This document shows positions 1-27,564 of a stretch of 64,000 bases of DNA, one piece after another. Under the pieces are notes generated by a model, which was given only the letters and a program-made list of their open reading frames with translations, was not told the origin of the DNA and did no database searches. Numbering within the stretch: position 1 is the stretch's first letter; every line of letters starts with the position of its first letter. The translations under genes were made by a program, and so were the position numbers. The stretch is from an uncultured SAR116 cluster alpha proteobacterium (lineage in GTDB: Bacteria; Pseudomonadota; Alphaproteobacteria; Puniceispirillales; Marisalimonadaceae), in the NCBI GenBank assembly GCA_902528415.1, contig CABZSR010000001.1:1-64000 (forward strand), in the 5' to 3' direction.

Positions 1-62
1 TTTGTAAAACATCCTGAGATTCTGACATTATAACAAGTGAGGTGTGGCTAATTATTAGATGG

Positions 63-115
63 ATTATTGGTAGCGGAGGAGGGACTTGAACCCCCGACAC
101 CCGGATTATGATTCC
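63..115 (-). repeat. tRNA-Met 3'-fragment, attachment-site copy 1 (outer left end of island)
   Basis: 53 bp identical to 27483-27535, the 3' part of the intact tRNA-Met gene, read on the minus strand from the anticodon loop through CCA. No 5' half of a tRNA follows, so it is not a functional tRNA. It is the displaced 3' end expected after an element inserted into the tRNA gene. The bases left of it (1-62) are probably the original chromosome. They contain no gene I can identify. Confidence 0.85.
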
Positions 116-137
116 CTTTTCCTAAATTTATTTTACA

Positions 138-205: not shown

Positions 206-355
206 AAATTATTTCTTTTAAAAACTATCATTTTTATATATTATTTTTTGATTTTCAAAATATATTGTTTTTTGATACTTTAATATTTGTTAACTTGTTA
301 AGATAACTTAATATAGATAAAATATAAATCCTGTTAATAACTATGGAGAGATTTT

Positions 356-1576
356 GTGTATATGAATTTTAATAGAAAATCTCAATTTGAGCATCGTTTA
401 GTAAAATATTTTTTTATTATCTTCATAACATTTATTTTTTCAAATGTTGCTTATGCAAAAAAGAATAAACGTACGTGGGATTATCCTCTTAATTGGTATA
501 AAAAATTTGAAGTAGAAGGTTCTAAGGATTTTGTCAATTTTGAGTTAAATTTAAGAAAAGATGAAGATATAATTAGAGAAATTAAAAACAACCAAGAGAC
601 AGGTGTCATAGGATATCTATTATATGAAGATGAAAAAATAACAATAGATGTATCAGATATGCCTACACATGCGAGAAAAGGAGGTGCAAAGATTATAAAT
701 GGTTTGTTACCTTCTCACTCAATAGGTAAAAGTTTAGTTTCATATGTTACAGGTCATGCTATATGCGAAGGTTATATTAAAAGTGTCCATGAAAAAATAA
801 CAGGTTGGAAAACCGTTCAAAATACTTTGTTTCAAGATCAAGTTTTAATTGATCTTTTAAACATGCAGGCAGGTGACGATAAATATGTAGGAGAAAGAAT
901 TAGACCGCGAGCAGACAGTAAACTTAAAAAAAATTATCCACAAATAAGTGTAAATACTATGCCTTTGCGTAATCTTTTGCAAATATATTTTCAAGGTTCA
1001 AAAAAACATATCCCATCTTTTAACGCGAAGAAACCAAAATACAACTATAGTGCATTAACAACGAACGTTATTATGAATTATGTTATCTATAAAACTGGAA
1101 AGGATTGGAAAAAACTCCTTCACAAAGTTTTTAATCAACATATAAAAGTTAAAGAAAATGTTCGCTTCCTTCAAACAGACAATCAAATGAACTCGGGAAG
1201 TTTACTTACTGAAACTGGACGATACTCTTTTTATGCAACAAGATATGATTATTTAAGAATTGCTAAAGCAATGTTAGACGATTGGCATAACAATACTTGT
1301 GCTGGCAAATATTTAAAAATGTTATACAAACAAAGAATAAAAAAAGATAAAAACACTATAGATCCTCCAACCGATCTTGCATTAGTTACTAATTCTTACG
1401 GAGGGCAGTTTCATTTTGATATTTTTGGTCTTCAAAAAAGAAAAATCATTGGTATGAGTGGTTTTGCAGGTCAACAAATATTAATTGATATAGATAAAAA
1501 AAGAATCATAGTTGTGAATTCTTTTTATAGAAACTACAACTGGAAAAAAATTGTTTACGACAAAATTAAACATTGA
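356..1576 (+). CDS. Secreted serine hydrolase, beta-lactamase / class C PBP-like family
   Basis: 406 aa. The start is GTG 356 (GGAGAG five bases upstream) or ATG 362. A signal peptide covers about residues 14-34, ending VAYA, so the protein is probably exported to the periplasm. The SxxK nucleophile motif is SIGK at 122-125. The second motif looks like YSA at 231-233 instead of YxN, and a C-terminal GFAGQ (369-373) sits where class C-type hydrolases carry the HxG/KTG strand. By family it could cleave a peptide, ester or amide; the substrate is unknown. It is the only gene between attachment copies 1 and 2, so it is cargo of a decayed element. I do not call it a resistance gene. Confidence 0.72.
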   Translation: MYMNFNRKSQFEHRLVKYFFIIFITFIFSNVAYAKKNKRTWDYPLNWYKKFEVEGSKDFVNFELNLRKDEDIIREIKNNQETGVIGYLLYEDEKITIDVSDMPTHARKGGAKIINGLLPSHSIGKSLVSYVTGHAICEGYIKSVHEKITGWKTVQNTLFQDQVLIDLLNMQAGDDKYVGERIRPRADSKLKKNYPQISVNTMPLRNLLQIYFQGSKKHIPSFNAKKPKYNYSALTTNVIMNYVIYKTGKDWKKLLHKVFNQHIKVKENVRFLQTDNQMNSGSLLTETGRYSFYATRYDYLRIAKAMLDDWHNNTCAGKYLKMLYKQRIKKDKNTIDPPTDLALVTNSYGGQFHFDIFGLQKRKIIGMSGFAGQQILIDIDKKRIIVVNSFYRNYNWKKIVYDKIKH

Positions 1577-1624
1577 AGGTATAATTTTAAAGAAATTTAA
1601 TCTTAAACAATTGTAATACTCTGG

Positions 1625-1677
1625 ATTATTGGTAGCGGAGGAGGGACTTGAACCCCCGACACCCGGATTATGATTCC
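1625..1677 (-). repeat. tRNA-Met 3'-fragment, attachment-site copy 2 (internal junction)
   Basis: 53 bp identical to copies at 63-115 and 27483-27535. Its right flank (to about 1780) resembles the right flank of copy 1 over about 100 bp, so the two elements have related ends. Its left flank is unlike either. This is the expected junction of two tandem integrations into the same tRNA site, or of repeated integration by related integrases. Confidence 0.85.
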
Positions 1678-10206: not shown

Positions 10207-10806
10207 TTAGATCAAATCTATTACTTTCTTTTGTGACTCAGAACCCCCTTCAATATATCTTTGTGTGGTTTGTAAAGAAGAATGACCCACCATCATCTGA
10301 ATGTCTCTTAATGATCCTCCAACTAATGAAATCTTCTTAGAGGTTTCAGTTATAAAAGTTCTTCTACCACTGTGTGAAGAACAACCTAATAATCCAAATC
10401 TCTTATACCAACTTTGAAACATATTAACGATTGCTTGCGATGTTGTAGACAATGACCTCTCAGTTCTAACAACAAAATTATTATTTTGATCAAATCCATG
10501 TTTTCCTTTTTGTTGAGTTAACATCATATTAAGATTTTCTTTTATATCTTTGTGTAATGGGATAATTCTTCCACTATTACCTTTACAAGATGAATTAGGT
10601 AGGTTGATGTAATCATCTATTGTACCATCAGACTTTGAAACCATTTTCCAATTCAGCATACTGATCTCTTTGGATCTCAAACCACTTTTAATAGATAACA
10701 AAAATATTGTTTCGTTCCTTAACCCATTCCGTTTGGATTTTAAAATACCTCTAACCATTTCAATTTGAGATTTATTTAAAGTTTTTGCCTGCTTTCCTAT
10801 ACCCAT
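10207..10806 (-). CDS. Catalytic-domain-only tyrosine recombinase
   Basis: 199 aa, comparable in size to the short FimB/FimE-type invertases rather than phage integrases. It lacks the N-terminal core- and arm-binding domains. The catalytic set is visible: Arg44 (SGLRSKEIS), HxxR at 145-148 (HSGRR), His175 (VGHSS) and nucleophile Tyr184 (TTQRYIE). It should cleave and rejoin short DNA sites. It abuts a truncated copy of the 80-aa gene and lies on the hsd side of the island, so it may have moved or rearranged the restriction cassette. An arm-like motif lies about 90 nt upstream. Confidence 0.88.
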   Translation of the reverse strand: MGIGKQAKTLNKSQIEMVRGILKSKRNGLRNETIFLLSIKSGLRSKEISMLNWKMVSKSDGTIDDYINLPNSSCKGNSGRIIPLHKDIKENLNMMLTQQKGKHGFDQNNNFVVRTERSLSTTSQAIVNMFQSWYKRFGLLGCSSHSGRRTFITETSKKISLVGGSLRDIQMMVGHSSLQTTQRYIEGGSESQKKVIDLI

Positions 10807-11518: not shown

Positions 11519-13231
11519 ATGAATAGTACAACAAACCTATCATCCCTTATCTGGTCGTCTGCTGATGATGTTCTTAGAGGTCTTTTTAAACCATCTGAAT
11601 ATGGTCGGGTTATTCTTCCTTTTGTCGTGATGAGACGTCTGGATTGTGTTCTCGAACCAAAAAAAGAAGAGGTTTACGAACTTTTTACCAAGTATAAAGA
11701 CCAACTTGAAGACCCATCTCCCGTTATTCTTCGACAAGTTAGTCTACCCTTTTTCAATACGTCACGGTTTGACCTGTCACGGATTAAAAGTGATCCAAAC
11801 AACGTATTGATGAATTTCAACAACTACGTCCAAGGGTATTCAAATAACGTTCTCGATATAATTGAGAATTTTTCCATTAATCCACTGGTTGAAAAACTTC
11901 ACAAACAAAATCGACTATATCTTCTGATCGACAAATTTACTGAGTTTGACCTTCATCCAGATAAAATAGACAACCATCAGATGGGTTCAGTCTATGAAGA
12001 ACTTCTTCGTAAGTTCTCTGAGATGTCCAATGAGGAAAGTGGAGACCACTTTACCCCTCGTGATGTGGTGAAGTTACTCGTGTCCTTCGTATTTGGTGGG
12101 GATAAACAAAACCTGTTGGGTGAAGGTAAAATCCGTTCGGTCTTTGATCCCTGTTGTGGAACAGGGGGGATGTTGACGATTGGTAAAGAATGGGTTCACG
12201 AAAACATCAATCCAAACCTGAAAATTGATCTTTATGGTCAAGAACTCAATGATGTGACCTATTCAATCTGTAAGTCAGATTTATTGATGATGGATGAAAA
12301 CCCTGAGAACATTCATGGTCCCTGTTCCTCTATCTCAGATGACCGTCTTCAAGGTCGTAAATTTGATTATATGATTACCAACCCTCCATTTGGAGTAAGT
12401 TGGAAATCTGAAGAGGAATTCGTTAAGGAAGAAGCAAAAGACCCTAATGGTCGGTTCTTTGTAGGGACCCCTCGAACCTCTGATGGATCGATGATATTCC
12501 TTCAACATCTGATTAACAAAATGAACCCAGAAGGATCGCGTATTGGGATTGTCTTCAACGGATCTCCACTTTTCACAGGAGATGCTGGTAGTGGTGAGTC
12601 TGAGATACGTAAATGGATCATCGAGAATGACTGGTTGGAATGTATTATATCCCTTCCAGATAGGATGTTCTTCAATACGGGAATCACGACTTATGTTTGG
12701 ATTGTAACCAACAAAAAATCATCTGATCGTAAAGGTAATGTTCAACTCATAGATGGAACGTCGTTCTCAACATCAATGAGAAAGAATCTTGGTGATAAGG
12801 GTAAATACATTACTGAGGAACAGATCCAAGAATTGTTTCAGATATATCAGAACAATGAAGAAAATGAGTTCTGTAAGATCTACCCAAATAGTTTCTTTGG
12901 ATACACTAAGGTTGTTGTTGAACAACCCTTAATCGAAGACGGTGCTATCAAGACTGATAAACAAGGAAACCCCAAACCAGACACGTCAAAACGCGATAGT
13001 GAGAGAGTTTTGTTATCTGAGAATATTGATGAATATTACAACCGTGAAGTCAAACCCCACATCCCTGATACATGGATGGATCGATCTAAAGATAAAATTG
13101 GGTATGAGATAAACTTCACCAAATATTTCTACAAGTTCTCTCCACTCAGAAGTCTTGAAGATATCTCTCAAGACCTAAAGTCACTCGATGACGAGATCAA
13201 ACGCTTGTCGATGGAGATGACTGATGAATAG
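11519..13231 (+). CDS. hsdM: Type I restriction-modification DNA methyltransferase subunit
   Basis: 570 aa. An N-terminal helical domain is followed by an adenine-N6 methyltransferase domain. The FTPRDVV entry segment is at 178-184, the SAM-binding motif I is DPCCGTGG (210-217), and the catalytic motif IV is NPPF (288-291). With HsdS it methylates adenines in the recognition site; with HsdR it forms the nuclease complex. The stop overlaps the hsdS start by 8 bp, giving translational coupling. Base composition is clearly richer in G+C than the flanking island genes (one sampled 60-bp line is 48%), a sign of a different recent source. Confidence 0.96.
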   Translation: MNSTTNLSSLIWSSADDVLRGLFKPSEYGRVILPFVVMRRLDCVLEPKKEEVYELFTKYKDQLEDPSPVILRQVSLPFFNTSRFDLSRIKSDPNNVLMNFNNYVQGYSNNVLDIIENFSINPLVEKLHKQNRLYLLIDKFTEFDLHPDKIDNHQMGSVYEELLRKFSEMSNEESGDHFTPRDVVKLLVSFVFGGDKQNLLGEGKIRSVFDPCCGTGGMLTIGKEWVHENINPNLKIDLYGQELNDVTYSICKSDLLMMDENPENIHGPCSSISDDRLQGRKFDYMITNPPFGVSWKSEEEFVKEEAKDPNGRFFVGTPRTSDGSMIFLQHLINKMNPEGSRIGIVFNGSPLFTGDAGSGESEIRKWIIENDWLECIISLPDRMFFNTGITTYVWIVTNKKSSDRKGNVQLIDGTSFSTSMRKNLGDKGKYITEEQIQELFQIYQNNEENEFCKIYPNSFFGYTKVVVEQPLIEDGAIKTDKQGNPKPDTSKRDSERVLLSENIDEYYNREVKPHIPDTWMDRSKDKIGYEINFTKYFYKFSPLRSLEDISQDLKSLDDEIKRLSMEMTDE

Positions 13232-14516
13232 ATATGAAGAATATAAAGAAACAGGTTTTGAATGGATAGGGAAAATACCAAGTGATTGGAGACTCTCCCG
13301 AGTAGGTAAGTTTTTTAATGAACGATCAGAAAAAGTCGATGATATAGAGTATCCGCCGTTGTCGGTAACTATGTCTGGAATTGTTGACCAACTATCAGAC
13401 GTTGCTAAGACAAACGACGGTGATAATCGAAAACTTGTCAAAAAAGATGATTTTGTAATCAATTCAAGAAGTGACCGTAAAGGTTCTTCAGGAATTGCTA
13501 CTCGAGATGGATCAGTTTCATTGATCAACATTGTGCTCGAACCTCATGGATTAGACCCTCACTTCATTCAGCACCTTTTCAAAAGTTACTATTTCAAGGA
13601 AGAATATTTTAGGAATGGAAAGGGTATTCACTGGGATCTTTGGACTACAAGGTGGGATCAATTTAAGAATATCAATATCCCAATTCCCACAATCCAAGAA
13701 CAAAAACTGATTTCTCGATATCTTGATAAGAAAACCGAACAGATCGACCGTTTAGTTGAGAAAATTCGGAAGAAAATTGAACTCCTCAAAGAACAACGGA
13801 CATCACTTATTAATCAGTGTGTCACCAAAGGTCTCGACCCGAATGTGGAGATGAAAGACAGCGGTGTTGAGTGGGTTGGTGAGATACCAAAACATTGGAA
13901 GACCCTTCGTCTTTGTAATTTTGGTTTATTCAGTAAAGGAAAAAACATAACGAAAGGTGATTTGGTCGAATTAGGTAAACCAGTAATTCTCTACAGTCAT
14001 CTTTATACAACTTACTCCCGATTAGTGAAAGAACCCAAATTTTTTATAAGTGACGATTTTGAGTTAAACAGCACCAAGATTTATAAGAACACTTTCCTAT
14101 TTACTTCATCAGGTGAGTCTAAAGAAGATATCGGTAAGTGTATTTTATATGTAGGTGATGAAACGTCTGTAGGTGGGGATCAAGTGATTTTTAAACTAAA
14201 ATCAACGTGTAATTTTGATCCAGAATTTTTATCATTTTCATTCAATTCCGACTGTTGTGTTAACCAAAAATCATCGAATTCTCGTGGTGAAATAGTAGTT
14301 CACATTTATGAAAAACAGTTACGGGATGTTGTTATCCCAATACCTCCGGAAAATGAACAAATTGTTATCAGAAGTAAATTACGGAAAATCGAGAAAAACT
14401 CCGATGAGATTATTCGAAATCTAGAACACAAGAGAGAATTACTTAAGGAATACCGTCAGTCTCTCATCTCTTCAGTTGTGACGGGTAAATTTCACGTGAC
14501 GGAGGACATGATATGA
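13224..14516 (+). CDS. hsdS: Type I restriction-modification specificity subunit
   Basis: 430 aa with the expected two half-sites. Target-recognition domain 1 is introduced by EWIGKIPSDWRLSRV and ends in the conserved helix with IQEQKLISRYLDKKTEQIDRL. Domain 2 is introduced by EWVGEIPKHWKTLRL and ends in a second helix with ENEQIVIRSKLRKIE. Each domain reads one half of a bipartite DNA target; the sequence read cannot be deduced here. The long helices act as a ruler between halves. It overlaps hsdM by 8 bp and hsdR by 4 bp (ATGA). Both domains look full length. Confidence 0.95.
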   Translation: MNRYEEYKETGFEWIGKIPSDWRLSRVGKFFNERSEKVDDIEYPPLSVTMSGIVDQLSDVAKTNDGDNRKLVKKDDFVINSRSDRKGSSGIATRDGSVSLINIVLEPHGLDPHFIQHLFKSYYFKEEYFRNGKGIHWDLWTTRWDQFKNINIPIPTIQEQKLISRYLDKKTEQIDRLVEKIRKKIELLKEQRTSLINQCVTKGLDPNVEMKDSGVEWVGEIPKHWKTLRLCNFGLFSKGKNITKGDLVELGKPVILYSHLYTTYSRLVKEPKFFISDDFELNSTKIYKNTFLFTSSGESKEDIGKCILYVGDETSVGGDQVIFKLKSTCNFDPEFLSFSFNSDCCVNQKSSNSRGEIVVHIYEKQLRDVVIPIPPENEQIVIRSKLRKIEKNSDEIIRNLEHKRELLKEYRQSLISSVVTGKFHVTEDMI

Positions 14517-17467
14517 GTGATCTCCGACCGACTGAGAAGAAGTTTGAAGATCATATTGAGTCCCATCTTAATTCGGTGGGATATGGGTCTACTCATTTCA
14601 ATGATTATGACCGAAACCTGTGTCTAATCCGTGATCAGGTCATTAAATTTATCAAGGCAACGCAACCCGAAGAATGGGGTCGGTTAAGTGAAATTTATGA
14701 TGTTGATACCGAGAACAAAATTCAGTCTCGCATATCATCAGAAATATCAAAACGTGGAATAATTGATGTCCTAAGGAACCAAGTTATTGATCGCGGGGTT
14801 TATCTTAACCTTTACTATCCCCAACCATCCAGCGATATGAACCCAGACCATCAAAAACTATATGAAACTAATAATTTCACTGTCGTTCGACAACTCCATT
14901 ATTCGACAAAGAATGAAAACTCTATCGACATGGGTTTATTCCTGAACGGTCTTCCCATTGTTACGATGGAGTTGAAAAACCAACTAACCGGACAAAATAT
15001 CAAACATTCAGAAAACCAATATCGATACGACCGTGATCCAAAGAATGAACCCCTGCTTCAGTTCAAACGGTGTCTGGTTCATTTCTGTGTGGATAATAAC
15101 AAGGTTTCAATGACCACAAGGTTATCTGGAAAGAAGACATTTTTTCTTCCGTACAACCGTGATCTTGAAAACCCACCTGTCGAAAATGGATATCGGACAA
15201 AATATTTGTGGGAAGAGGTTTTAACCCCTAACTCCCTATTGGATATTCTTGAGAACTTTGTACACGTATCCGAGGAAAAAGAATTCTTCTTTAATGATAA
15301 AACCCAAAAGATTGATACCAAGAAAAAGGAGGTCCTAATATTTCCTCGGTATCATCAACGGGATTTAATCCTGAATTTTAGAAGACAGATAAAAGAGGAT
15401 GGTGTCGGAAAGAACTATCTGGTTCAGCACACCACTGGGTCAGGTAAATCCTATTCGATTGGATGGTTATCGCACACCCTGACCTCCCTATACCAAAAAA
15501 AGGGAGACACCAAACGGATGTTTGATACCATTATTGTGGTAACAGACAGAACCGTTTTGGACGACCAGTTAAGAAACACAATTCGTTCACTGGAGAAAAT
15601 TGATGGTGTGGTTAATGGTGTTGAACATGGATCACAAGAACTCAAGAGGTTTTTGGAACAAGGTAAAGACATAATCATTACTACAATTCAGAAATTTCCT
15701 TTTATCTCAGAAACCATTACTTCGTTAGGTGATAGAACTTTTGGAGTCATTATTGATGAGGTTCATTCCAGTCAATCTGGTGAGTTATCAAAAGAACTAA
15801 AAAAGTCACTTTCCAAAACTGATGAAAGTGATGATGACAATTTTGATTATGAAGAAATGTTAAGGCAGGAAATTCAGAACCGAGGAAAACAAGATCATAT
15901 TTCGTTCTTTGGTTTTACAGGAACTCCAAAAGAAAAAACTCTCGAATTATTTGGAACAAAAACTCCACAAGGTCAGTTTGTACCCTTTCACATTTATTCA
16001 ATGTATCAGTCAATTCACGAAGGATTCACATTAGATGTTCTTCAAAATTATACGACTTATAAACGTTACTTTAAAGTAAAGCAGACAAAAGATGGTGATA
16101 TTGAAATTCCAGTTAGTAAAGGAAAAAAGGAATTAATAAAGTATGTAGACTCGCATAAAATGACCATACGAAATAAAGTTAATATTATTCTAGATCATTG
16201 GATTGAAAAAGGATCTAAGGAGATACAGGGTCGTTCAAGAGGAATGGTTGTTACACAATCTCGTAAACACTGTGTTTGGTTTGTGAACGAGATTAATAAA
16301 CAACTACAAGAAAAAGGTATGAATTTCAAAAGTCTAGTTGGGTTTTCTGGCGAAGTGAATTTAGACGGGGAAAAATATACTGAGTATGGTATGAACCAAA
16401 CATTTGGTCATGAAGGTGACGTTCCACTAGGTCTTAAAAACCCTAAATTTAAATTATTAGTGGTGGCAAATAAGTTTCAAACAGGTTTTGATGAACCATT
16501 AGTTCAATCAATGTATGTTGATAAAACTTTAGGAGGTGTTCAGTGTGTACAAACTCTTTCTAGACTCAACAGAACCACATCAGGTAAAACTCATACTTTC
16601 GTTTTAGATTTTGCAAATGAACCCACTGATGTTCAAGCATCCTTTCAAAGGTTCTATCAATCTACTATTCTTGATAGTGAGACAGACCCAAATAAACTTT
16701 ATGATCTATCAAGAGAAATCTACGATTTTCATCTTTATACCAAAGAAGATGTAAATAGATTTTGTAAGATTTTCTTTGATGATCACAGAGATGAGGGATC
16801 CTTACACCCTATTCTTGACGCAGTTGTTGATAAATTTAATAAGATTGAAGATGAAGAAATGAAAGAAGATTTTAAATCAAAAATCCAATCTTATATTCGC
16901 ATGTATGGTTATCTATCCCAGATAGTCAATTTTACTGATATTGAATTAGAAAAAACTTTCGTATTTTTAAAATTTTTAAACAAAAAACTTCCTAAAAAAG
17001 ATACCGGAAAGTTAGATATATCAGACACTATTGATTTAGAGTCACTAAGAATACAAAAATTGCATGAAAAAAATTATAAATTAGAAAATGAAGATACAAC
17101 AATTCAACCTAAAGAAGGTAGAGATACACCAAAACCTGAAACTGAATTTGATTTTCTGTCAGAAATTATAAATGAAATTAATAACGTGTATGGTGTAAAC
17201 ATAACAGACGAAGACAAAATTGATTTGTCACGACTTAAAAGACGTATAATGAATAATCCAGAAATAGAAAAGTATATGACTGGACAGAATACTGACGATA
17301 ACAAGCAGAACTATTTCAAAGAACAGTTTGAAGGTTTGATGCTAGACTATGTGAATGAACGTTTCGATTTTTATAAAAAGATGGATGATAATCCATCAAT
17401 GAAAAATATGATTTTCCAGAGAATATATTCTGATTACCTTAAATCTCAGAATGAAAGAACTACTTAA
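14513..17467 (+). CDS. hsdR: Type I restriction enzyme motor and nuclease subunit
   Basis: 984 aa. The N-terminal nuclease domain shows a D...ExK pattern (DMGLFLNGLPIVTMELKNQ, residues about 140-156). The SF2 helicase motor has Walker A GSGKS near 309-313, motif II DEVH near 416, and FTGTP near 468. It pumps DNA through the complex and cuts distant sites. All three operon genes are intact, so the system is probably active. The G+C content falls sharply near 15,660, inside the motor, from about 42% to about 28%, pointing to a recombination joint within the gene. It ends convergent to the 80-aa gene, overlapping it by 8 bp. Confidence 0.96.
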   Translation: MSDLRPTEKKFEDHIESHLNSVGYGSTHFNDYDRNLCLIRDQVIKFIKATQPEEWGRLSEIYDVDTENKIQSRISSEISKRGIIDVLRNQVIDRGVYLNLYYPQPSSDMNPDHQKLYETNNFTVVRQLHYSTKNENSIDMGLFLNGLPIVTMELKNQLTGQNIKHSENQYRYDRDPKNEPLLQFKRCLVHFCVDNNKVSMTTRLSGKKTFFLPYNRDLENPPVENGYRTKYLWEEVLTPNSLLDILENFVHVSEEKEFFFNDKTQKIDTKKKEVLIFPRYHQRDLILNFRRQIKEDGVGKNYLVQHTTGSGKSYSIGWLSHTLTSLYQKKGDTKRMFDTIIVVTDRTVLDDQLRNTIRSLEKIDGVVNGVEHGSQELKRFLEQGKDIIITTIQKFPFISETITSLGDRTFGVIIDEVHSSQSGELSKELKKSLSKTDESDDDNFDYEEMLRQEIQNRGKQDHISFFGFTGTPKEKTLELFGTKTPQGQFVPFHIYSMYQSIHEGFTLDVLQNYTTYKRYFKVKQTKDGDIEIPVSKGKKELIKYVDSHKMTIRNKVNIILDHWIEKGSKEIQGRSRGMVVTQSRKHCVWFVNEINKQLQEKGMNFKSLVGFSGEVNLDGEKYTEYGMNQTFGHEGDVPLGLKNPKFKLLVVANKFQTGFDEPLVQSMYVDKTLGGVQCVQTLSRLNRTTSGKTHTFVLDFANEPTDVQASFQRFYQSTILDSETDPNKLYDLSREIYDFHLYTKEDVNRFCKIFFDDHRDEGSLHPILDAVVDKFNKIEDEEMKEDFKSKIQSYIRMYGYLSQIVNFTDIELEKTFVFLKFLNKKLPKKDTGKLDISDTIDLESLRIQKLHEKNYKLENEDTTIQPKEGRDTPKPETEFDFLSEIINEINNVYGVNITDEDKIDLSRLKRRIMNNPEIEKYMTGQNTDDNKQNYFKEQFEGLMLDYVNERFDFYKKMDDNPSMKNMIFQRIYSDYLKSQNERTT

Positions 17468-17702
17468 ATACATCTAATTGATTTTGTAATTTATTTAATT
17501 CTGACTTTACTTTTTTTCTTTCAACTTCAAGATATTTTAATCCCTTATCAATACCTTCTAGTACTTTATCTCTGTCACCTCGAAAATCTGGTAATATTTC
17601 ATCAGCAATTTTATTTTTATATTTTTTCAATACCCTTTTTGCATTTACAAAAGATGTAATTTGGTCTTCTAAATAATGTTCTTTACTCGCATACGATGTC
17701 AT
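17460..17702 (-). CDS. Small helical protein associated with the hsd locus
   Basis: 80 aa, almost entirely helical: a first amphipathic helix (EHYLEDQITSFVNAKRVLKKY) and a C-terminal coiled-coil helix (LEVERKKVKSELNKLQNQLDVF). It is convergent with hsdR, overlapping its end by 8 bp. A truncated paralogue (10108-10206) lies at the other side of the hsd cassette in opposite orientation. The repeated association hints that it travels with the restriction locus, but no function is known. Confidence 0.6.
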   Translation of the reverse strand: MTSYASKEHYLEDQITSFVNAKRVLKKYKNKIADEILPDFRGDRDKVLEGIDKGLKYLEVERKKVKSELNKLQNQLDVFK

Positions 17703-17832
17703 TAGTATTAACCTTAATAATATATTTAATATTATACTAATTTTTAAACTATAATTTTAGTTTAAATGTTAAATGAAAATTTAATATTTTCAATTTCTTA
17801 GAACAATCGATAAATTAAGAAAAGTTAGAATT

Positions 17833-19203
17833 ATGAATAAATATAAATCAAAATATAAATTTAATAATAAATCACCGATTGATTTATTTATTGATATTCT
17901 TCATGAAATGCATGGATTATACGCAAATAGTCATGATTTAACTGATTTTATTTTGTTTATGTTTTTTTATAAATCACTGTCTGATGAATTTGATAAGCAT
18001 AGAAACAGAGTTCTTAAAAAATTAATATCTGAAGGTAAATCAGAGGAGGTCGCTCAAACTTTATCCCTTAAAACCTATTATTATCATTCAAAGATTTTTA
18101 TACCAGAATCTTCAAGTTGGAAAAATTTAAAAAATCAAGAAAATGATTTTAGTTCGTTTATTATGGATTCATCAAGAACTATTGAAAATATGAACCCTCA
18201 AATTAATGGAATTTTGAAATTTTTTAGGTCTTCAATTAAATTAATAAATGATGAACAATATAAAACAATAATAATCAAACTATCGAAACAAAATTTATCA
18301 CTATTTAATTTAAAAAAACATAATATGTTAAATTCTCTTTTTGAGGAATTTAGAGGTCTATATATAAATTATTATTCTCCTGAATTCATAACTAAATTAA
18401 TTGTGACTATATTTAAACCAAATGAAAGTACGTCTATATTTGATCCTTGCGCATATGCAGGATCGAGTTTAATTAATTTAATGAAATCCATTGGTGTTAA
18501 TAATGCAAAGAATTTTTTTGTTAATACATATGATTTGAGAGAGTATGTTTTTTGCAAAATTAATTTTATATTAAATGGATTGACTACCAACAATATAAAT
18601 CACATTAAAAGTTATAATTTTAATTGTATTAGAACTAAAAAAAATCTGGGAGTAGAGAAAACTATTAAAAGTAAAACTTTCAATTTTGAAGGTTTTGACA
18701 TTATTGCTTCTCAATTACTTTTTTTTAGGTCCCATAATTTTTTAAGACAAAATACTACGGAGAAAAACTTTATATCCAAATATGGAAGACCTGCGACAAA
18801 TAATACAAACTTAACTATGATTTTAAAAATGATTGAGCACTTAAAACCAAAAGGACAAGGAGCATTCATAACATCTATAAAAAGACTATTTTTTTCAAAG
18901 TCTAAAAAAGATTATTACATTAAAAAAATACTGGTTGAAGATGACATTATTGAATCAATTATAAAATTACCACTAGAGTTCTATAATAATGTAGAAGCAC
19001 AATTAATTATAATTAACAAAAATAAATCAAAATTTAGAAAAAACAACATACTATATATAGATGGAAGCAAATTTGGAGATAATTCAATCTTACAGGAAAT
19101 AAGAGATAATTATCTTAAACCCAATTATCAATCTTCTGTTATTCGAACCATTTCATTAAATAAAGTAATTAAAAATAATTATGATTTATATATGTACTTA
19201 TAG
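17833..19203 (+). CDS. Degenerate HsdM-like protein, probably catalytically dead
   Basis: 456 aa. The order of segments follows HsdM. An N-terminal helical domain (FILFMFFYKSLSDEFDKHR, as in LGLIFLKYISDAFEER of canonical HsdM) is followed by YYSPEFI in place of FTPRxxV, a motif I remnant DPCAYAGSS (about 204-212), ASQLLFF where NPPF should be (about 292-298), then the conserved C-terminal strands with LKPKGQGAFITS and IIKLPLEFYNN. The catalytic NPPF is lost and the SAM loop is altered, yet the frame is open throughout. It has no hsdS or hsdR partner and is strongly AT-rich, unlike hsdM. It could be a decoy, regulator or subunit of an unknown system. Confidence 0.75.
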   Translation: MNKYKSKYKFNNKSPIDLFIDILHEMHGLYANSHDLTDFILFMFFYKSLSDEFDKHRNRVLKKLISEGKSEEVAQTLSLKTYYYHSKIFIPESSSWKNLKNQENDFSSFIMDSSRTIENMNPQINGILKFFRSSIKLINDEQYKTIIIKLSKQNLSLFNLKKHNMLNSLFEEFRGLYINYYSPEFITKLIVTIFKPNESTSIFDPCAYAGSSLINLMKSIGVNNAKNFFVNTYDLREYVFCKINFILNGLTTNNINHIKSYNFNCIRTKKNLGVEKTIKSKTFNFEGFDIIASQLLFFRSHNFLRQNTTEKNFISKYGRPATNNTNLTMILKMIEHLKPKGQGAFITSIKRLFFSKSKKDYYIKKILVEDDIIESIIKLPLEFYNNVEAQLIIINKNKSKFRKNNILYIDGSKFGDNSILQEIRDNYLKPNYQSSVIRTISLNKVIKNNYDLYMYL

Positions 19204-19756: not shown

Positions 19757-20548
19757 TCAAATAATTTTAACTCCATCCTTCCATATTCCAGTTTCTACTT
19801 TTCCTAATTTATCAGTAAATTTTCCATTACCATTGTATAAATGATTTAAGAATTCACCTTCATATTTAGAACCGTCTTCTTTTAAAAGTGTACCAATTCC
19901 ATTAAATTTATTATCTTTAAATTCACCCGTATATTTTTTTTTATTAGGAAATGTTAATGTTCCTTTTCCATTAAACATATTCTTTGCAAATTCACCCTCA
20001 TATATTAAACCACTAGCAAACTTATATTTTCCTTTTCCATGAAATTTTTTATTTTTAAAATCACCATTATACTCTTCACCATCACTGTAAAACATGAAAC
20101 CATGACCATTTAATATATCTTTAACTACAAAAAGACTATCTGCTGTGTAACTTCTTAATTCATCTTCTCCATCATTAAAATTTGAAATCCAAGAACCAAT
20201 TTTTTTGTTATTTTTGTAATTACCTTCCTCAAATAATTTTCCATTTATGTGAAAACTTTTATACAGACCATCCAATTTTCCTTTTTTATAAAAACACTTG
20301 CATCTTATTTGAGTATTTTCATAGTAAGCAGTAAAATATCCGTGTTTCTTTCCATCTTCATAATGACACATACTTAATTTGAAACTACCTTCTTTATTAG
20401 TAAAAGGAGCATAATTAATCCAAGAACCTACTCGTTTTCCGTCCGTTACAAGACCTGTCTCAAAATTTAAATCTTTTATTTTTCCTGAAAATTTCTTGTT
20501 GTTGGAAGTATTGTAATATATTTCGTCTTGTACAAAATATTCACTCAT
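19757..20548 (-). CDS. MORN-repeat protein with N-terminal MORN-2 region
   Basis: 263 aa. Residues about 1-125 follow the YwqK/MORN-2 pattern (for example GKKHGYFTAYYENTQ and GKLDGLYKSFHINGK). Residues 150-263 contain four to five classical MORN repeats of about 23 residues (YNGDFKNKKFHGKGKYKFAS, YEGEFAKNMFNGKGTLTFP, and so on) ending in GIWKDGVKI. MORN arrays are beta-hairpin stacks used for protein or lipid binding. AAGGA precedes the ATG. A diverged copy of the repeated upstream element is at 20609-20658. Its C-terminus resembles that of the other MORN protein (24850-25512). Confidence 0.7.
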   Translation of the reverse strand: MSEYFVQDEIYYNTSNNKKFSGKIKDLNFETGLVTDGKRVGSWINYAPFTNKEGSFKLSMCHYEDGKKHGYFTAYYENTQIRCKCFYKKGKLDGLYKSFHINGKLFEEGNYKNNKKIGSWISNFNDGEDELRSYTADSLFVVKDILNGHGFMFYSDGEEYNGDFKNKKFHGKGKYKFASGLIYEGEFAKNMFNGKGTLTFPNKKKYTGEFKDNKFNGIGTLLKEDGSKYEGEFLNHLYNGNGKFTDKLGKVETGIWKDGVKII

Positions 20549-20899: not shown

Positions 20900-21169
20900 C
20901 TATTTTCTTCTACCAATACTTTTCATATAACTTATAAATTGTTTATTGTCCGAACTGAATGCTATTCCTAATCCACTTATATAACCTAGCAATTTGTTTT
21001 GCTGTGATAATAATCGATTTTGTTCATTAGCATCGTCAGACACTTGAATTTGCGTGTCTAAACTCCGTATTTTTATAACGATGCCTCCAATTACTGTTTT
21101 CAACCACATTGATGATTCATTTAAATTTCTAATATTGTTTAATAATAAGTGATTTTTAAAAGATAACAT
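20900..21169 (-). CDS. Small unknown protein of the replication-like module
   Basis: 89 aa, predicted mostly helical, with a heptad-like middle (DDANEQNRLLSQQNKLLGYI) and a basic tail (SIGRRK). It starts 2 nt after the stop of the 60-aa gene, downstream of the RHH gene, in an apparent three-gene operon. Its role is not recognisable from sequence. Confidence 0.5.
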   Translation of the reverse strand: MLSFKNHLLLNNIRNLNESSMWLKTVIGGIVIKIRSLDTQIQVSDDANEQNRLLSQQNKLLGYISGLGIAFSSDNKQFISYMKSIGRRK

Positions 21170-21171
21170 TT

Positions 21172-21354
21172 CTAACTCTTTATAATGATAATAGAGAAAG
21201 GAATCTTATTATTTGAAGTATTATTAATAACTGCAATAACATCTTTTTTACTCTTAAAATCTATAACTTCATGAACACTAATTTTAGGATTAGTTAATGA
21301 CTGAATATTTCTAATTAATTGTGATTTATTTGGATTTATTATTTGAGATAACAT
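21172..21354 (-). CDS. Small unknown protein of the replication-like module
   Basis: 60 aa from ATG 21354, chosen because the ATG shares a base with the RHH gene's TAA (TAATG), typical of coupled translation. A longer frame would start inside the RHH gene. The sequence has a beta-rich C-terminal half (SVHEVIDFKSKKDVIAVINN and then IPFSIIIIKS). No family was recognised. Confidence 0.5.
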   Translation of the reverse strand: MLSQIINPNKSQLIRNIQSLTNPKISVHEVIDFKSKKDVIAVINNTSNNKIPFSIIIIKS

Positions 21355-21704
21355 TAGTAAGTATTCTCCCAATTATAGTCTGATCTAATTGGTATCATTG
21401 GTGGTTCATTATCTTCATTTTTCTTTTGAATCATTCTTTCAATTGATTTTTCTCTTTCCTCGATATGTTTTCTATTCCTATTGGTGATATCAATAATAAG
21501 ACTGTTTAATATTTTATCCTCTTTAATTTTATTGAATTCTTGCCTACAAAATGACTGGATCAAATTAATCATGACAGACGTCCTGCTCTGCCCTTTAAAT
21601 TTCACTAAATTATCAAAATTCTCTTTTAAATAATCTGGTATATTAAAATTAATTAATATTTTATTAGATCTACTTAATAAATCTTTAGACTGATTATATT
21701 TCAT
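21354..21704 (-). CDS. Ribbon-helix-helix-type DNA-binding protein
   Basis: 116 aa. Residues 17-50 fit the ribbon-helix-helix fold: a short strand (KILINFNIP), helix 1 (YLKENFDNLVKF), a turn (KGQS) and helix 2 (RTSVMINLIQSFCRQ). Proteins of this size beside Rep-like genes often control copy number or relaxase assembly. The C-terminal half is a charged helix. It is first in a three-gene minus-strand operon and lies downstream of the HUH Rep-like gene, with a hairpin between. Confidence 0.62.
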   Translation of the reverse strand: MKYNQSKDLLSRSNKILINFNIPDYLKENFDNLVKFKGQSRTSVMINLIQSFCRQEFNKIKEDKILNSLIIDITNRNRKHIEEREKSIERMIQKKNEDNEPPMIPIRSDYNWENTY

Positions 21705-21771
21705 CTACTAATCCTTTCTTTTAAAGAATAATTAAAATCTCTTAATCTAATTTAGGCATAACTTCATAATT

Positions 21772-21794
21772 AAAGAGTTTATTAAAAACTCTTT
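21772..21794. terminator. Hairpin between the Rep-like gene and the RHH gene
   Basis: Nine-base perfect stem AAAGAGTTT / AAACTCTTT with loop ATTAA, followed on the plus strand by a T run (CTTTTTT). It lies 50 nt past the Rep-like stop (21845) and upstream of the RHH start. It probably ends the Rep transcript, or is a structural element such as an origin hairpin. Confidence 0.5.
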
Positions 21795-21844
21795 TTTAAA
21801 GTTCCAATCTATTGCTAATTTTAGGAGTTTATACTCGACTTAAA

Positions 21845-22324
21845 TTATTGAATTGTTGTATTAACCCAATCAATAGAATTTTCATCAAAGTCTTTCATGA
21901 TATAATAATACCACCCTACTTTTCTATCTTGTTCAGTAGGATTTTCTATATGGATTTGATCAAATCCATAATTCGTTGATTTCCATATTTCACGAATATG
22001 ATACTCAAATTCATCAAATAAAATATGACTTGGTCTGTCAAAAATACAATGTAAGTGATGTCGTGAATTTAGACTTGTCTCTCTTGTAACGATCATGTTC
22101 ATTGATTTTCCATATCTATAATATGAATTTCCAAAAAACTTTTTATTAAGTTTATTTCTGAAGTGCCTAAAGTTTTCTGAAGACCTTATGTCATCAATTA
22201 TAAAACCATTAATCATCTGCTTTTGAGTTAAAGTAAGATTAATTTGATTTTTGAAGTTCTTATTTAAATTAAAGTGATTTCTCAACTCTTTGATTAAAGT
22301 TGATCTACCTCTTCCTTTCAGCAC
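21845..22324 (-). CDS. HUH-type Rep-like replication or mobilisation protein
   Basis: 159 aa. It shows the two core motifs of single-strand nicking (HUH) enzymes: a His-hydrophobic-His pair HLH at 90-92 (in HHLHCIFD) and a tyrosine YxxK at 141-144 (YIMK). The preceding segment LTLTQKQMINGFIID...SSENFRHFRNKLNKK resembles a family of short Rep-like proteins on islands and plasmids. The enzyme would nick one strand at an origin and stay linked through the tyrosine. It makes the island a candidate for rolling-circle replication after excision. The next gene is transcribed divergently. Confidence 0.65.
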   Translation of the reverse strand: MLKGRGRSTLIKELRNHFNLNKNFKNQINLTLTQKQMINGFIIDDIRSSENFRHFRNKLNKKFFGNSYYRYGKSMNMIVTRETSLNSRHHLHCIFDRPSHILFDEFEYHIREIWKSTNYGFDQIHIENPTEQDRKVGWYYYIMKDFDENSIDWVNTTIQ

Positions 22325-22429
22325 TCTTATTTCTCCTTTTTAAATATTTATGAACTATTTATTATGTATTTATTTATATAACCTCGTCATACTAGTTTTA
22401 AGTTTTTAAAATTAAATTGACCAAAAAAG

Positions 22430-23122
22430 ATGTCATTAATGAGTGGAACAAAAAGAATACAGATTAAGTCAAGAAAACAGCACATTAGGTTGTGGTTTGA
22501 GTTTTATAAAATTTGTCTTACACAAATTGAATTTAAAAAAAATCTAATGCAATCTCGTCACTTTTATAAACCTTGGGGAAACGTCTTAGACATTAAATTT
22601 GATGATTGGTGGAACATCAACAAAGACCTTTTTGGACCTACGAGAGTTGAAGAAATATCTAAGATATCTAAACACCCTAATAGTCTAAATTTAGTTATTC
22701 CCTTAAACCAAAAATTAACAACAATTCTAAACAACGTAAAAACTATTATAGAAACTAAACAGGTTAGTAGATTAAAAGAAATAGGAGTTAATCATAAAAC
22801 ACTTAAGTCATTAGACAAAGGTTTTGGTGAATACGAACTATCTTCAAAGGAAATTAAAGGACAATCCATTTATCAAATCCTCTTAATTTATCAAGTTTTT
22901 ATAAAACATAATAAACCTCCTATTAACAAAGAGTTCTTAATCAACATTCATGAATTCTTAAAAGAAAGACCAAGAAGTATTTTGAGAAGTTTTAGATCTA
23001 TTAATGAAGATCTACACAAATATACACCTGGTCAACTTGACAACGAAATCAGAGTTATTAGAAGAAACATCAAACAAGGATACAATGTTCTTAAAAACGT
23101 TAGTCTTGGGAAATTTCCATAA
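22430..23122 (+). CDS. Island-associated protein of unknown function (WF/WW motif family)
   Basis: 230 aa, basic and soluble. The N-terminus has a conserved-looking run: RLWFEFYKICL (residues about 20-30), SRHFYKPWG (42-50) and KFDDWWNINKDLFG (56-69). The Trp and Phe positions are typical of a family I associate from memory with integrative elements of proteobacteria. The function is not known. It is divergent from the HUH Rep-like gene, 105 bp apart, so they may share a promoter region and belong to the same maintenance module. Confidence 0.55.
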   Translation: MSLMSGTKRIQIKSRKQHIRLWFEFYKICLTQIEFKKNLMQSRHFYKPWGNVLDIKFDDWWNINKDLFGPTRVEEISKISKHPNSLNLVIPLNQKLTTILNNVKTIIETKQVSRLKEIGVNHKTLKSLDKGFGEYELSSKEIKGQSIYQILLIYQVFIKHNKPPINKEFLINIHEFLKERPRSILRSFRSINEDLHKYTPGQLDNEIRVIRRNIKQGYNVLKNVSLGKFP

Positions 23123-24849: not shown

Positions 24850-25512
24850 ATGAAATCCAATAATGAAAATGTATATAAATTTAAATTGCCTACGAAATCT
24901 AAAGTATATGAAGGTGAAACTAAAAATGGTAAATTTCATGGAAAAGGCACTTTAACTTTTGAAGATGGAATTAAGTATGAAGGTGAATTTAAAGATGGTT
25001 TAATTCATGGGAAAGGTACTTATACGTATTTAAAAGGGGAAAAACTTTTTGGAAATTTTAAAAATAACTGTCTAGTTGATAATCAGGGAGTTTTTATAGA
25101 TGATCAAGGTGGTAAATTTGAAGGCATATTTGGAAAAGGAGGAATGATTAAAGGTATTTATACTTACATCAATGGAGATAAATATGAAGGTGAATTTAAT
25201 GGTATTTTACCTTATGGAGAAGGAACGTGGACTTTTAAGGATGGAAGTAAATATATAGGTAAATTTAAAGACGGATTAAAACATGGGAGAGGTGTTTGGA
25301 CCTTTGAAAAACAAAAATTTAAATATGAAGGTGAATTTAAAAACGACAAAATGAATGGGCAAGGAACTTTATTTAATGAAAATGGGGGTAAGATTGAGGG
25401 TGAATTTTTGAATAATCGTTTAACTAAAGGAACTATTACTCATCCAGATGGTACAATAGAGAAGGGTATGTGGAAAGATGGAGAAAAGGTGAACTATTTA
25501 AATCTAATCTAA
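24850..25512 (+). CDS. MORN-repeat protein
   Basis: 220 aa made almost wholly of eight MORN-type repeats of about 22 residues, the clearest being YEGETKNGKFHGKGTLTF, YEGEFKDGLIHGKGTYTY and YIGKFKDGLKHGRGVWTF. Repeats 3 and 4 are irregular. No signal peptide. It ends KGMWKDGEKV, like GIWKDGVK at the end of 19757-20548, so the two are relatives. MORN arrays bind partners or membranes; the partner here is unknown. Probably expressed with 24268-24807. Confidence 0.7.
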   Translation: MKSNNENVYKFKLPTKSKVYEGETKNGKFHGKGTLTFEDGIKYEGEFKDGLIHGKGTYTYLKGEKLFGNFKNNCLVDNQGVFIDDQGGKFEGIFGKGGMIKGIYTYINGDKYEGEFNGILPYGEGTWTFKDGSKYIGKFKDGLKHGRGVWTFEKQKFKYEGEFKNDKMNGQGTLFNENGGKIEGEFLNNRLTKGTITHPDGTIEKGMWKDGEKVNYLNLI

Positions 25513-26214: not shown

Positions 26215-27393
26215 CTAAAAAGTTTGAAGGTTTTCTACTAGATCATCATTCATTTCTAAATTTTTAAGATAAAATCTTTCAAGTTGTTCAACACTTGTAC
26301 CAGCATTCTTTGCAAGATTAAATATATTTACCTTACCTTTACTTTTTACAAGTCTTGTCTGTAATGAATAATGTCTTAGTGCGTATGGAGTGAGAATTTG
26401 TCCATCTGAAGTTTCTTTAATTTTTGCGAGATTCAAAATATAATTAAATTGTCTGTTTACGTTTCTTATTGCAGTTGAACGATTAGGATAATTATTAAAA
26501 AATAAATAATCATCTGGTTTATAATCTGGATTTAATATTCTTAATTTGTCATAAAAGTCTAATGCATCCGGCATAGTTGAAACTACTCTATAACCTGTCT
26601 TGCCTTTAACTCTTATTTCTAATCTGTTGGGTTTATATTTTACCTCTATATCTTGATGTTTAACTGAGAAGACTTCACTTTCGGTTGGTCTCATAAATGA
26701 ATGCACTATAAAGACAAAAAAATAATATAACTCATCAGTTATTTGTATCCCCCTCACCTCAACTTGATTGTCGATAACTTCTCTGGTTGTTTTCAAAAAT
26801 AATTTATATTTTTTTTCAGTGAAGGTAGGTCTTGGATTATCTTTTTTAGATATTTTAGGCACCATTGGGATTTTATCCAAAACACCTTTTTCAAAAGCAA
26901 TTTTTAGGACCTTACTTATTACAATTAAGTGTTTAGATTGAAATGATGCTGACAAACCTTTTTGTCGGTTTTCATCTAAAAAAGTTAGGTAATTTCTTAG
27001 ATCGTAGGTGGAAATATCCTTTATATCTCTGTTACCAAAATATTCGTTTATTCCATCATTTTTTCTAAGCAGTAAACCTTCATCATCTAAGTGAAATCTT
27101 TTACTTCTAGTTTTACCTGACATTGACCTTTGCTGTTTCATCAAAAGACTGGAAAAGTAGTTGAAAGTTTTATTGGTTGGTATTTTTTTGAAAGTTGTGT
27201 TTTGTAATTTTAAGAAGAACTCTTGAGCAACTTCCCTTGCATCAATCCTTGTAGTTTCTTTTGTAGATCGAGTAAGGTATTTTTTATTAATTGGATCCCA
27301 AATTCTTGCAAAGTAATATGGACTTCTTCCAGTTTTATATAAAGATAGACCTTTGTGGACATGAATCCTTTGTGTTACTTGGTTCTTATTCAT
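26215..27393 (-). CDS. int: Phage-type tyrosine integrase of the tRNA-Met island
   Basis: 392 aa from ATG 27393; an upstream in-frame start would lie inside the arm-site DNA. It has an N-terminal arm-binding region (SLYKTGRSPYYFARIW) and a core-binding domain. The catalytic domain shows Arg (HSFMRPTE), a Lys hairpin (KGKTGYR), the ALRHYS box and nucleophile Tyr (ERFYLK). The first His of HxxR is Tyr, and Asn replaces the usual later His (KNAGTS), both seen in phage integrases. It lies 94 bp from the tRNA 3' end, the standard place for an integrase that uses that tRNA as target. Confidence 0.93.
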   Translation of the reverse strand: MNKNQVTQRIHVHKGLSLYKTGRSPYYFARIWDPINKKYLTRSTKETTRIDAREVAQEFFLKLQNTTFKKIPTNKTFNYFSSLLMKQQRSMSGKTRSKRFHLDDEGLLLRKNDGINEYFGNRDIKDISTYDLRNYLTFLDENRQKGLSASFQSKHLIVISKVLKIAFEKGVLDKIPMVPKISKKDNPRPTFTEKKYKLFLKTTREVIDNQVEVRGIQITDELYYFFVFIVHSFMRPTESEVFSVKHQDIEVKYKPNRLEIRVKGKTGYRVVSTMPDALDFYDKLRILNPDYKPDDYLFFNNYPNRSTAIRNVNRQFNYILNLAKIKETSDGQILTPYALRHYSLQTRLVKSKGKVNIFNLAKNAGTSVEQLERFYLKNLEMNDDLVENLQTF

Positions 27394-27405
27394 AATCCAT
27401 AATTT

Positions 27406-27480
27406 AGTGTATAACTGTGTATAACTCAAGTATGGAAATAAAAGACTATTATAAACTATTATAAACTATTGATTTTACTA
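27406..27480. promoter_or_regulatory. Putative integrase arm-binding region
   Basis: Contains AGTGTATAACTGTGTATAAC (27406-27425), matching the repeats beside attachment copies 1 and 2. It also holds a 10-bp tandem repeat (ATAAACTATT twice, 27451-27470) ending in TAAACTATTGATTTT, the reverse complement of AAAATCAATAGTTTA at 141-155. Directly precedes the tRNA copy. Confidence 0.55.
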
Positions 27481-27482
27481 AT

Positions 27483-27535
27483 ATTATTGGTAGCGGAGGA
27501 GGGACTTGAACCCCCGACACCCGGATTATGATTCC
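27483..27535 (-). repeat. Attachment-site copy 3 (inside the intact tRNA)
   Basis: 53 bp identical to 63-115 and 1625-1677. It covers the tRNA from the anticodon stem to just past CCA, so insertion restored a full tRNA. It marks the right end of the island. Confidence 0.88.
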
Positions 27536-27564
27536 GGTGCTCTAACCAGCTGAGCTACTCCGCC
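27488..27564 (-). tRNA. Elongator tRNA-Met (anticodon CAT)
   Basis: Complete cloverleaf on the minus strand: acceptor GGCGGAG/CTCCGCT, D-arm with AGCTGGTTA, anticodon stem CCGGA/TCCGG with loop ATCATAA (anticodon CAT), T-arm with TTCAAGT, and encoded CCA. The TCATAAT loop context fits the elongator type rather than initiator tRNA. Isoleucine-type (lysidine) tRNA is less likely by overall sequence. The 3' part from the anticodon loop is repeated at 63-115 and 1625-1677. Confidence 0.95.

What the first reader, a model, noticed from the sequence alone, without database searches (positions are those of the whole stretch)
20900..23122. Candidate rolling-circle replication module in the island
An HUH-type Rep-like protein (HLH and YIMK), a ribbon-helix-helix protein with two coupled small genes, a hairpin and a divergent WF/WW-motif gene form a compact unit. 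It implies that the element can replicate after excision, like an integrative plasmid or satellite. No capsid or conjugation genes are visible, so it would need help to move.
Basis: partly seen in the sequence, partly recalled or inferred. Interest (0 to 1): 0.55.

Follow-up and report, generated by a model that had tools for sequence, protein, structure and literature searches.

The report
Plasmid-like replication module in marine island
A stretch of DNA inserted beside a tRNA gene in an ocean bacterium carries what looks like its own small replication kit, an enzyme that nicks DNA plus a conserved landing site for it, so the island probably behaves as an integrated plasmid that still needs help to spread.

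Summary
The ORF at 21845-22324(-) belongs to a family of 149-184 aa proteins with invariant HUH motifs (TxT, HxH, YxxK; 8 of 8) and an HUH Rep-like fold. All 8 match Pfam REP_ORF2-G2P, but the window copy is below that model's cut-off. The island is bounded by 53-bp att repeats, with an integrase beside tRNA-Met; no empty site was shown. New here is a cis site: starting 51-90 nt 3' of Rep, on the Rep strand, a hairpin of changing sequence, then CTTTAAT-N3/4-TAATATTACCTAAA. Leave-one-out scoring ranks it first in 11 of 11 loci; trained without the window, the window copy is first of 128,000 positions. One relative is only 2.8 kb between 59-bp repeats: integrase, Rep, this site, two conserved small proteins and one further ORF. 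Most likely it is an integrative plasmid that replicates by rolling circle from that site after excision; excision, nicking and copy-number rise are not shown. The WF/WW gene is separable. New variant of a known kind (integrated HUH-Rep plasmids), without their helicase.

The parts
63..115 (.). att copy 1 (53 bp identical to the tRNA-Met 3' part), left of a 1.56-kb att-att segment
1625..1677 (.). att copy 2, left end of the island that holds the module
27483..27535 (.). att copy 3 inside tRNA-Met, right end of the island (about 25.9 kb)
27488..27564 (-). tRNA-Met (cat), integration target
26215..27429 (-). tyrosine integrase (INT400 family, 404 aa)
   Evidence: weak Pfam match, E 0.013; 401-aa homologue L042 matches Phage_int_SAM_5 above cut-off, E 1.1e-5; homologues next to tRNAs in L042, L067, L068, L080, L094
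10207..10806 (-). second, small tyrosine recombinase (XER199), about 74% identical in L009 and L015
   Evidence: Pfam PF00589 1.8e-17
21845..22324 (-). HUH Y1 Rep, 159 aa: motif I T31/T33, motif II H90/H92, motif III Y141/K144
21772..21794 (-). hairpin of the candidate origin
21750..21777 (-). conserved CTTTAAT-N4-AAGTTATGCCTAAAT block, candidate Rep recognition/nick site (relatives read TAATATTACCTAAA)
22367..22381 (-). TATAAATA block 5' of Rep, probable promoter -10 (or iteron)
   Evidence: 12.4 bits against a maximum of 12.0 in 12 shuffles: marginal
21354..21704 (-). ribbon-helix-helix protein, 116 aa, probable repressor of the module
21172..21354 (-). S63 small conserved protein, also in the 2.8-kb element
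20900..21169 (-). S88 small conserved protein with MxxF[KR]x[FYH] leader and (L/I)xE
22430..23122 (+). WF/WW gene, 230 aa; accessory, function unassigned
   Evidence: model unusable
11519..17467 (+). cargo: complete type I restriction-modification system (hsdM, hsdS, hsdR)

Best explanation
The unit is the replication core of an integrative plasmid. The integrase excises the island from tRNA-Met as a circle (inferred). Rep, a single-domain one-tyrosine HUH endonuclease, recognises the hairpin 3' of its own gene and nicks the adjacent TAATATT/ACC-like strand, giving a 3' end for host polymerase and helicase: rolling-circle replication (inferred from motifs, fold and the conserved site). Termination at the same site would release single-stranded circles (inferred). 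The RHH protein probably represses rep or the downstream genes, holding copy number low (inferred from family). S63 and S88 are conserved accessory proteins of unknown role. The WF/WW gene is an accessory of this integrase/element class, not part of replication. Transfer needs a helper (inferred from the absence of recognised transfer genes).
For: Invariant HUH motifs in 8 of 8. PF23343 in 8 of 8, best 9.9e-7. AF2 model pLDDT 80.3, pTM 0.77; the first four Foldseek PDB rows are circovirus Rep; best VIA row is SIRV1 ORF119, Z 9.5, rmsd 2.8, 109 aligned; 47 BFVD rows at E<=1e-3, among them a microvirus replication initiator. Conserved 3' site: leave-one-out rank 1 in 11 of 11; trained without the window, its site is first of 128,000; unsupervised search on 9 loci without the window 24.8 bits against a maximum of 17.2 in 40 shuffles. 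Minimal 2.8-kb att-flanked element with Int, Rep, site, S63 and an RHH-like protein. Att repeats of the island. No dispersed copies of the site in the own genome.
Against: The window protein is below Pfam's cut-off (20.3 against 27.8 bits) and no PHROG or NCBIfam matched it at E<=1. No Foldseek PDB row has E<=0.001, the TM-scores are low (0.38 for the first row), and ribosomal S6 chains reach Z 9.1 in VIA. The window's own site is divergent: a 1-nt longer spacer, and rank 273 in an ungapped scan. Distant Reps L024, L025, L026, L038, L039 do not carry the site (ranks 5, 34, 56, 147, 416), and L015 leads only narrowly (13.0 against 12.1 bits). No relative was confirmed in the phage and plasmid records or in three viral-contig scans (the contig scans use few short patterns), so no free replicating form is on record. 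The hairpin alone is weak in L043 (z -0.67). No empty integration site was found.
Confidence: 0.7

Rival explanations
1. The protein is mainly a small relaxase and the 3' site is an oriT: it nicks the excised circle so that a helper's conjugation pore can move it.
For: A hairpin followed at once by a conserved single-strand motif is also the layout of conjugative nic sites (recalled). A weak Relaxase_C match (E 0.0072, below cut-off) sits at 17460-17702.
Against: Pfam and the named fold matches are mostly to replication initiators. A 2.8-kb element in which I see no coupling protein or accessory Mob gene keeps it (ORF list; its other ORFs were not scanned against Pfam). The two roles are not exclusive.
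Confidence: 0.15
2. The module belongs to a phage satellite: replication is switched on by phage infection and the DNA travels in phage heads.
For: PICMI satellites of marine Vibrio are small, integrated, and were described as replicating by rolling circle and packaged as concatemers (PMC10803314, passages). The last gene of the module has a leader MxxF[KR]x[FYH] plus (L/I)xE; of 541 ORFs in 26 loci only 5 start so, all at this gene position, one with a body that the S88 profile does not match. T4 head protease cuts after L/I-X-E (PMC9026906, passages).
Against: No capsid, terminase or packaging family found in the 32 island ORFs scanned; no relative confirmed in viral contigs; the phage search with S88 gave only chance-level rows (E 5-6). 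The leader is short and its pattern was written after seeing the proteins.
Confidence: 0.1
3. A decayed remnant: the module was once active but this copy is dead cargo.
For: The window site has the odd spacing; the 97-aa gene between Rep and RHH of four relatives is absent; S88 copies with internal stops occur in 5 of 11 hit genomes.
Against: The motif residues and the open frames are intact; no hit for the 97-aa gene was found in L042 and L043 either; the site still ranks first.
Confidence: 0.1
4. A REP-associated tyrosine transposase (RAYT) with its REP hairpin.
For: TnpA-REP (4er8) is among the Foldseek rows (rank 19) and RAYTs act on hairpins (recalled).
Against: One leading site per locus in 11 loci, each 3' of the gene; no second copy in the own genome (next match 19 bp, E 0.002).
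Confidence: 0.03

Closest known systems
pCRESS-type integrated bacterial plasmids (PMC6668415, passages read)
   Same: HUH Rep on site-specifically integrated plasmids bounded by direct repeats, without viral structural genes
   Different: pCRESS Reps carry an SF3 helicase domain; this Rep ends after the nuclease domain (159 aa)
REP_ORF2-G2P replication proteins (Pfam PF23343; known from microvirus and inovirus type phages, recalled)
   Same: Same nuclease domain, weak but consistent match in 8 of 8
   Different: Window copy below cut-off; the host element is an integrase-bearing island in which no phage structural family was found
SIRV1 Rep (PDB 2x3g, ORF119)
   Same: Single-domain HUH Rep; best structural match, Z 9.5; nicking and joining shown in vitro according to PMC6668415
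   Different: Encoded by an archaeal virus with a linear genome (linear: recalled); 15% identity
Actinomycete integrative elements of the pSAM2 type (PMC3218068, search listings only)
   Same: tRNA-integrated, with a rolling-circle Rep (recalled)
   Different: They carry their own DNA-transfer gene (recalled); none recognised here
PICMI satellites of marine Vibrio (PMC10803314, passages)
   Same: Minimal integrated marine elements reported to replicate by rolling circle
   Different: Putative primase among the genes, no HUH Rep in the passages read; inserted beside fis; packaging shown there, not here

Membership tests
HUH endonuclease superfamily (Y1 Rep) | Motif I, HxH and YxxK invariant | tested here: met
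   8 of 8 aligned homologues; 5 of 5 in A7
HUH endonuclease superfamily (Y1 Rep) | HUH fold | tested here: met
   Model pLDDT 80.3; first Foldseek rows circovirus Rep (E 1.1e-3, TM 0.38); best VIA row SIRV1 ORF119 Z 9.5, though ribosomal S6 rows reach Z 9.1, so the fold alone is not decisive
HUH endonuclease superfamily (Y1 Rep) | Strand-specific nicking through tyrosine | not testable with these tools
   Needs biochemistry
Pfam PF23343 REP_ORF2-G2P | Score at or above the curated cut-off | tested here: not met
   Window protein 20.3 bits against 27.8; best member E 9.9e-7, its bit score not shown
pCRESS plasmids | SF3 helicase fused to the nuclease | tested here: not met
   159-aa protein, no helicase domain matched
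pCRESS plasmids | Site-specific integration with direct repeats | tested here: met
   (window, L012, L013)
Rolling-circle plasmid with a cis double-strand origin | Conserved hairpin/nick-like site linked to rep | tested here: met
   function of the site not tested
Rolling-circle plasmid | Free circular or single-stranded form | not testable with these tools
   No reads; no relative among plasmid or phage records
tRNA-integrated genomic island | Integrase and att repeats at a tRNA gene | tested here: met
tRNA-integrated genomic island | Empty site in a relative | tested here: inconclusive
   The window's first 62 bp abut the intact tRNA in 9 of 29 other loci, but different genes follow there, one of them primase-like by eye, so these sites look occupied by other elements
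Conjugative or pSAM2-like element | Own transfer gene | tested here: inconclusive
   No transfer family above cut-off in Pfam scans of 33 window ORFs; most small ORFs had no family at all
Phage satellite | Phage induction and packaging | not testable with these tools
   Only a short leader motif speaks for it
RAYT/REPIN system | Dispersed hairpin copies | tested here: not met

The most novel reading that the evidence does not exclude
A new family of marine phage satellites: the excised tRNA island is amplified by a helicase-less HUH Rep at a geminivirus-like TAATATT/AC site, and the last gene of the module makes a small protein with a T4-type capsid-targeting leader (MxxF[KR]xF...(L/I)xE) that is built into, and cut inside, the head of a T4-like helper, so that the island travels in phage particles. 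The leader stays at this gene position even where the body of the protein is replaced (L042).
Probability: 0.08. Interest if true: 0.8.

Novelty: new variant of a known kind. Interest (0 to 1): 0.5.

Why it matters
How islands of SAR116-type marine bacteria move is, as far as I know, largely open (recalled). A Rep, a defined candidate origin and a 2.8-kb natural minimal element make 'island that replicates as a plasmid' directly testable. The origin sequence resembles the nick site of geminiviruses (recalled), which bears on where the replication of such viruses came from; that resemblance is suggestive only. It also links a type I restriction-modification cargo to a probably replicating carrier.

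Tried and rejected
EMPTY SITE, WITHDRAWN: I first read as showing empty sites, because the window's first 62 bp run straight into an intact tRNA-Met in 9 of 29 other loci. Looking further left I found that different genes follow that short stretch: a 316-322 aa ORF that reads like a primase by eye in L081, L085, L090, L093 and L100, other ORFs in L084, L092, L095. Four of the nine genomes also have att copies further along the same contig (G003, G013, G019, G039). The stretch is therefore more likely the tRNA-near end of other elements, and the island's borders rest on the 53-bp repeats alone. The odds for the replication module do not depend on this and are unchanged.

Origin upstream of Rep (22325-22429): only an AT-rich TATAAATA block, marginal against 12 shuffles; read as promoter. 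The ungapped motif scan ranked the 11 sites first in 8, third in L015, sixth in L014 and 273rd in the window; the gapped two-block model was made after seeing the window's longer spacer, with spacers 2-4 allowed everywhere. The sites in the training set were picked by eye. Distant Reps L024, L025, L026, L038, L039 lack the site; L024-L026 and L036-L039 were left out of the training set and (10 and 9 of 18 Rep loci used; L013 dropped there as a near copy of L012; the window dropped). In some searches the real data had 300 restarts, the shuffled sets 60 and 80. RNA model R1 was built with a structure string shifted by one column and was never used. WF/WW structure: pLDDT 46, no use made of it. 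The Ochrobactrum phage row for S88 (E 5) is chance level. In one search no att repeat of 14 bp or more was found around the tRNAs in L009, L015, L042, L067, L068, L072 or L023 within the fetched stretch (2 of 9 loci gave one), so those ends are not shown. The genome-contig scan with the window protein alone found no relative. Charybdis elements (PMC12324425, abstract and passages) differ: archaeal hosts, no known replication protein. Literature searches listed no description of this element; they cover the held open-access library only, and I saw listings, not full papers, except the passages named.

Full report
WHERE IT IS. Four named records hold Rep relatives, among them one titled SAR116 cluster and Alexandriicola marinus LZ-14 (the latter a member of Rhodobacterales, recalled). 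Host-like genes right of 27.6 kb lie beside tRNA-Met 27488-27564. A 53-bp stretch of that tRNA is repeated exactly at 63-115, 1625-1677 and 27483-27535, so 1678-27535 is most simply an insertion, with a second 1.56-kb att-att segment behind it. The window's first 62 bp resemble the tRNA-near end of other elements in sister genomes, so a third element may lie beyond the contig's edge; I have no empty site. The integrase (26215-27429) is related to integrases in L009, L015 and L042.

THE REP. Eight aligned proteins share T31, T33, H90, H92, Y141 and K144 without exception. Pfam's REP_ORF2-G2P matches 8 of 8, best 9.9e-7, but the window protein itself scores below the cut-off. The AlphaFold model has pLDDT 80.3 and pTM 0.77 from 5 sequences. 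Foldseek lists porcine circovirus Rep first (E 1.1e-3, probability 1.0, TM 0.38), then, mixed with unrelated ferredoxin-like folds, ISDra2, AAV Rep, wheat dwarf virus Rep and TnpA-REP. VIA puts SIRV1 ORF119 first (Z 9.5), but ribosomal S6 chains reach 9.1, so the fold alone is not decisive; motifs, Pfam and fold together are persuasive.

THE MODULE. Rep, an RHH protein and S63 occur together in the window, L009, L010, L011, L015, L042 and L043; S88 is there in all but L042, which has a different 99-aa gene at that position, and the L011 copy is only 49 aa. A 97-aa gene lies between Rep and RHH in L009, L010, L011 and L015, with a weak relative in L014 (E 1e-4). L014 keeps Rep, RHH and the divergent WF/WW gene, beside ORFs that read as serine recombinases (by eye). 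L023 has Rep and RHH beside a serine-recombinase-like ORF (by eye). L012 and L013 have integrase, Rep, S63 and a 49-aa protein that reads as an RHH (by eye). L012 is complete: 59-bp direct repeats in tRNA-Arg 2,808 bp apart enclose the integrase, Rep, a 101-aa secreted-looking ORF, S63 and the 49-aa protein; L013 is the same core with about 6.2 kb between 62-bp repeats and a methyltransferase-like ORF (by eye) as cargo. This is the strongest argument that the unit is a self-contained replicon.

THE SITE. Comparing the 3' flanks of Rep showed a hairpin whose sequence changes between loci while pairing is kept, then CTTTAAT, a short spacer and a block that reads TAATATTACCTAAA in L011, GAATATTACCTAAA in L023 and TAATATTATCTAAA in L010. 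DNA folding z-scores of 11 sites run from -6.05 (L014) and -4.85 (L023) to -0.67 (L043); the window is -2.36. Tests: an ungapped matrix ranked 8 of 11 sites first, L015 third, L014 sixth and the window 273rd. A two-block matrix with spacer 2-4, leaving out each locus in turn, ranks the site first in 11 of 11 loci, starting 51-90 nt after the Rep stop; L015 leads narrowly (13.0 against 12.1), and L009-L011 and L012-L013 are close relatives. Outside the set, L036 and L037 (near copies of each other) rank first and L024, L025, L026, L038, L039 rank 5, 34, 56, 147, 416 (2 of 7). Trained on nine other loci only, the window site is first of 128,000 positions, 18.6 bits against 14.7. An unsupervised search in 150-nt 3' flanks finds the same block in 9 of 9 loci (24.8 bits; 40 dinucleotide shuffles, maximum 17.2) and in 7 of 7 less redundant loci (23.2; maximum 18.9), with more restarts for the real data than for the shuffles. 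The site has no second copy in the own genome. No long T run follows the hairpin, so a terminator is a poor reading (direct reading). The likeness to the TAATATT/AC nick site of geminiviruses is recalled knowledge; in L011 the nine letters are identical.

MECHANISM. Shown: att repeats, gene set, Rep motifs, Rep-like fold, conserved site. Inferred: excision, nicking at the site, rolling-circle replication, RHH repression. Not known: S63, S88, WF/WW. The WF/WW family (9 of 136 genomes of the order, 3 of 385 of the class sample) also occurs in INT400 elements in which I found no Rep of this family, two of them closely similar by eye in genomes of different families (L067, L068), so it goes with the integrase class. 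A leader MxxF[KR]x[FYH] marks the last gene of the module: 5 of 541 mechanical ORFs in 26 loci, all at that position, all with (L/I)xE in the first 20 residues, against 92 of 541 ORFs with (L/I)xE at all (the S88 copies of L011, L043 and L070 fell outside that ORF list through length, overlap or start choice, and the pattern was written after seeing the proteins). It recalls T4 capsid-targeting leaders (PMC9026906, passages). I give the satellite reading 8-10%.

KNOWN AND NEW. Integrated plasmids with HUH Reps are known (pCRESS: 97.5% of the Reps of several groups lie on integrated elements, no structural genes; PMC6668415, passages). This family lacks their helicase and has its own origin layout and companions. 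I found no description of it in the searches named under Tried and rejected.

Noticed in passing
window 1-62: The stretch left of the first att copy resembles the tRNA-near end of other elements: it abuts the same tRNA in 9 of 29 other loci, followed by differing genes, in five of them a primase-like ORF (by eye).
   Followed up: partly
window 116-1677: A second, 1.56-kb att-att segment in tandem with the island, holding one ORF (356-1576, 406 aa) that reads like a serine hydrolase by eye but has no Pfam match at E 0.1.
   Followed up: partly
window 10207-10806: A 199-aa tyrosine recombinase, about 74% identical to copies in L009 and L015, more conserved than Rep; related copies accompany INT400 integrases in other elements.
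   Followed up: partly
window 11519-19203: Complete type I restriction-modification cargo plus a second HsdM-like ORF (17833-19203) in which I see no NPPF motif, possibly non-catalytic.
   Followed up: no
window 19757-20548, 24850-25512: Two MORN-repeat proteins flank the replication region.
   Followed up: no
window 17460-17702: 80-aa ORF with a sub-threshold match to Relaxase_C (E 0.0072).
   Followed up: no
L067 and L068: Closely similar (by eye) INT400 elements beside tRNA-Met in genomes of different families of the class, pointing to recent transfer.
   Followed up: partly
tRNA-Met locus in genus genomes: Extra att-like repeats near the same tRNA in several relatives (for example G001, G013, G031, G032), a hotspot of tandem integration.
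   Followed up: partly
L062-L066: S88 homologues with stop codons in five genomes, remnants of the same element family.
   Followed up: no
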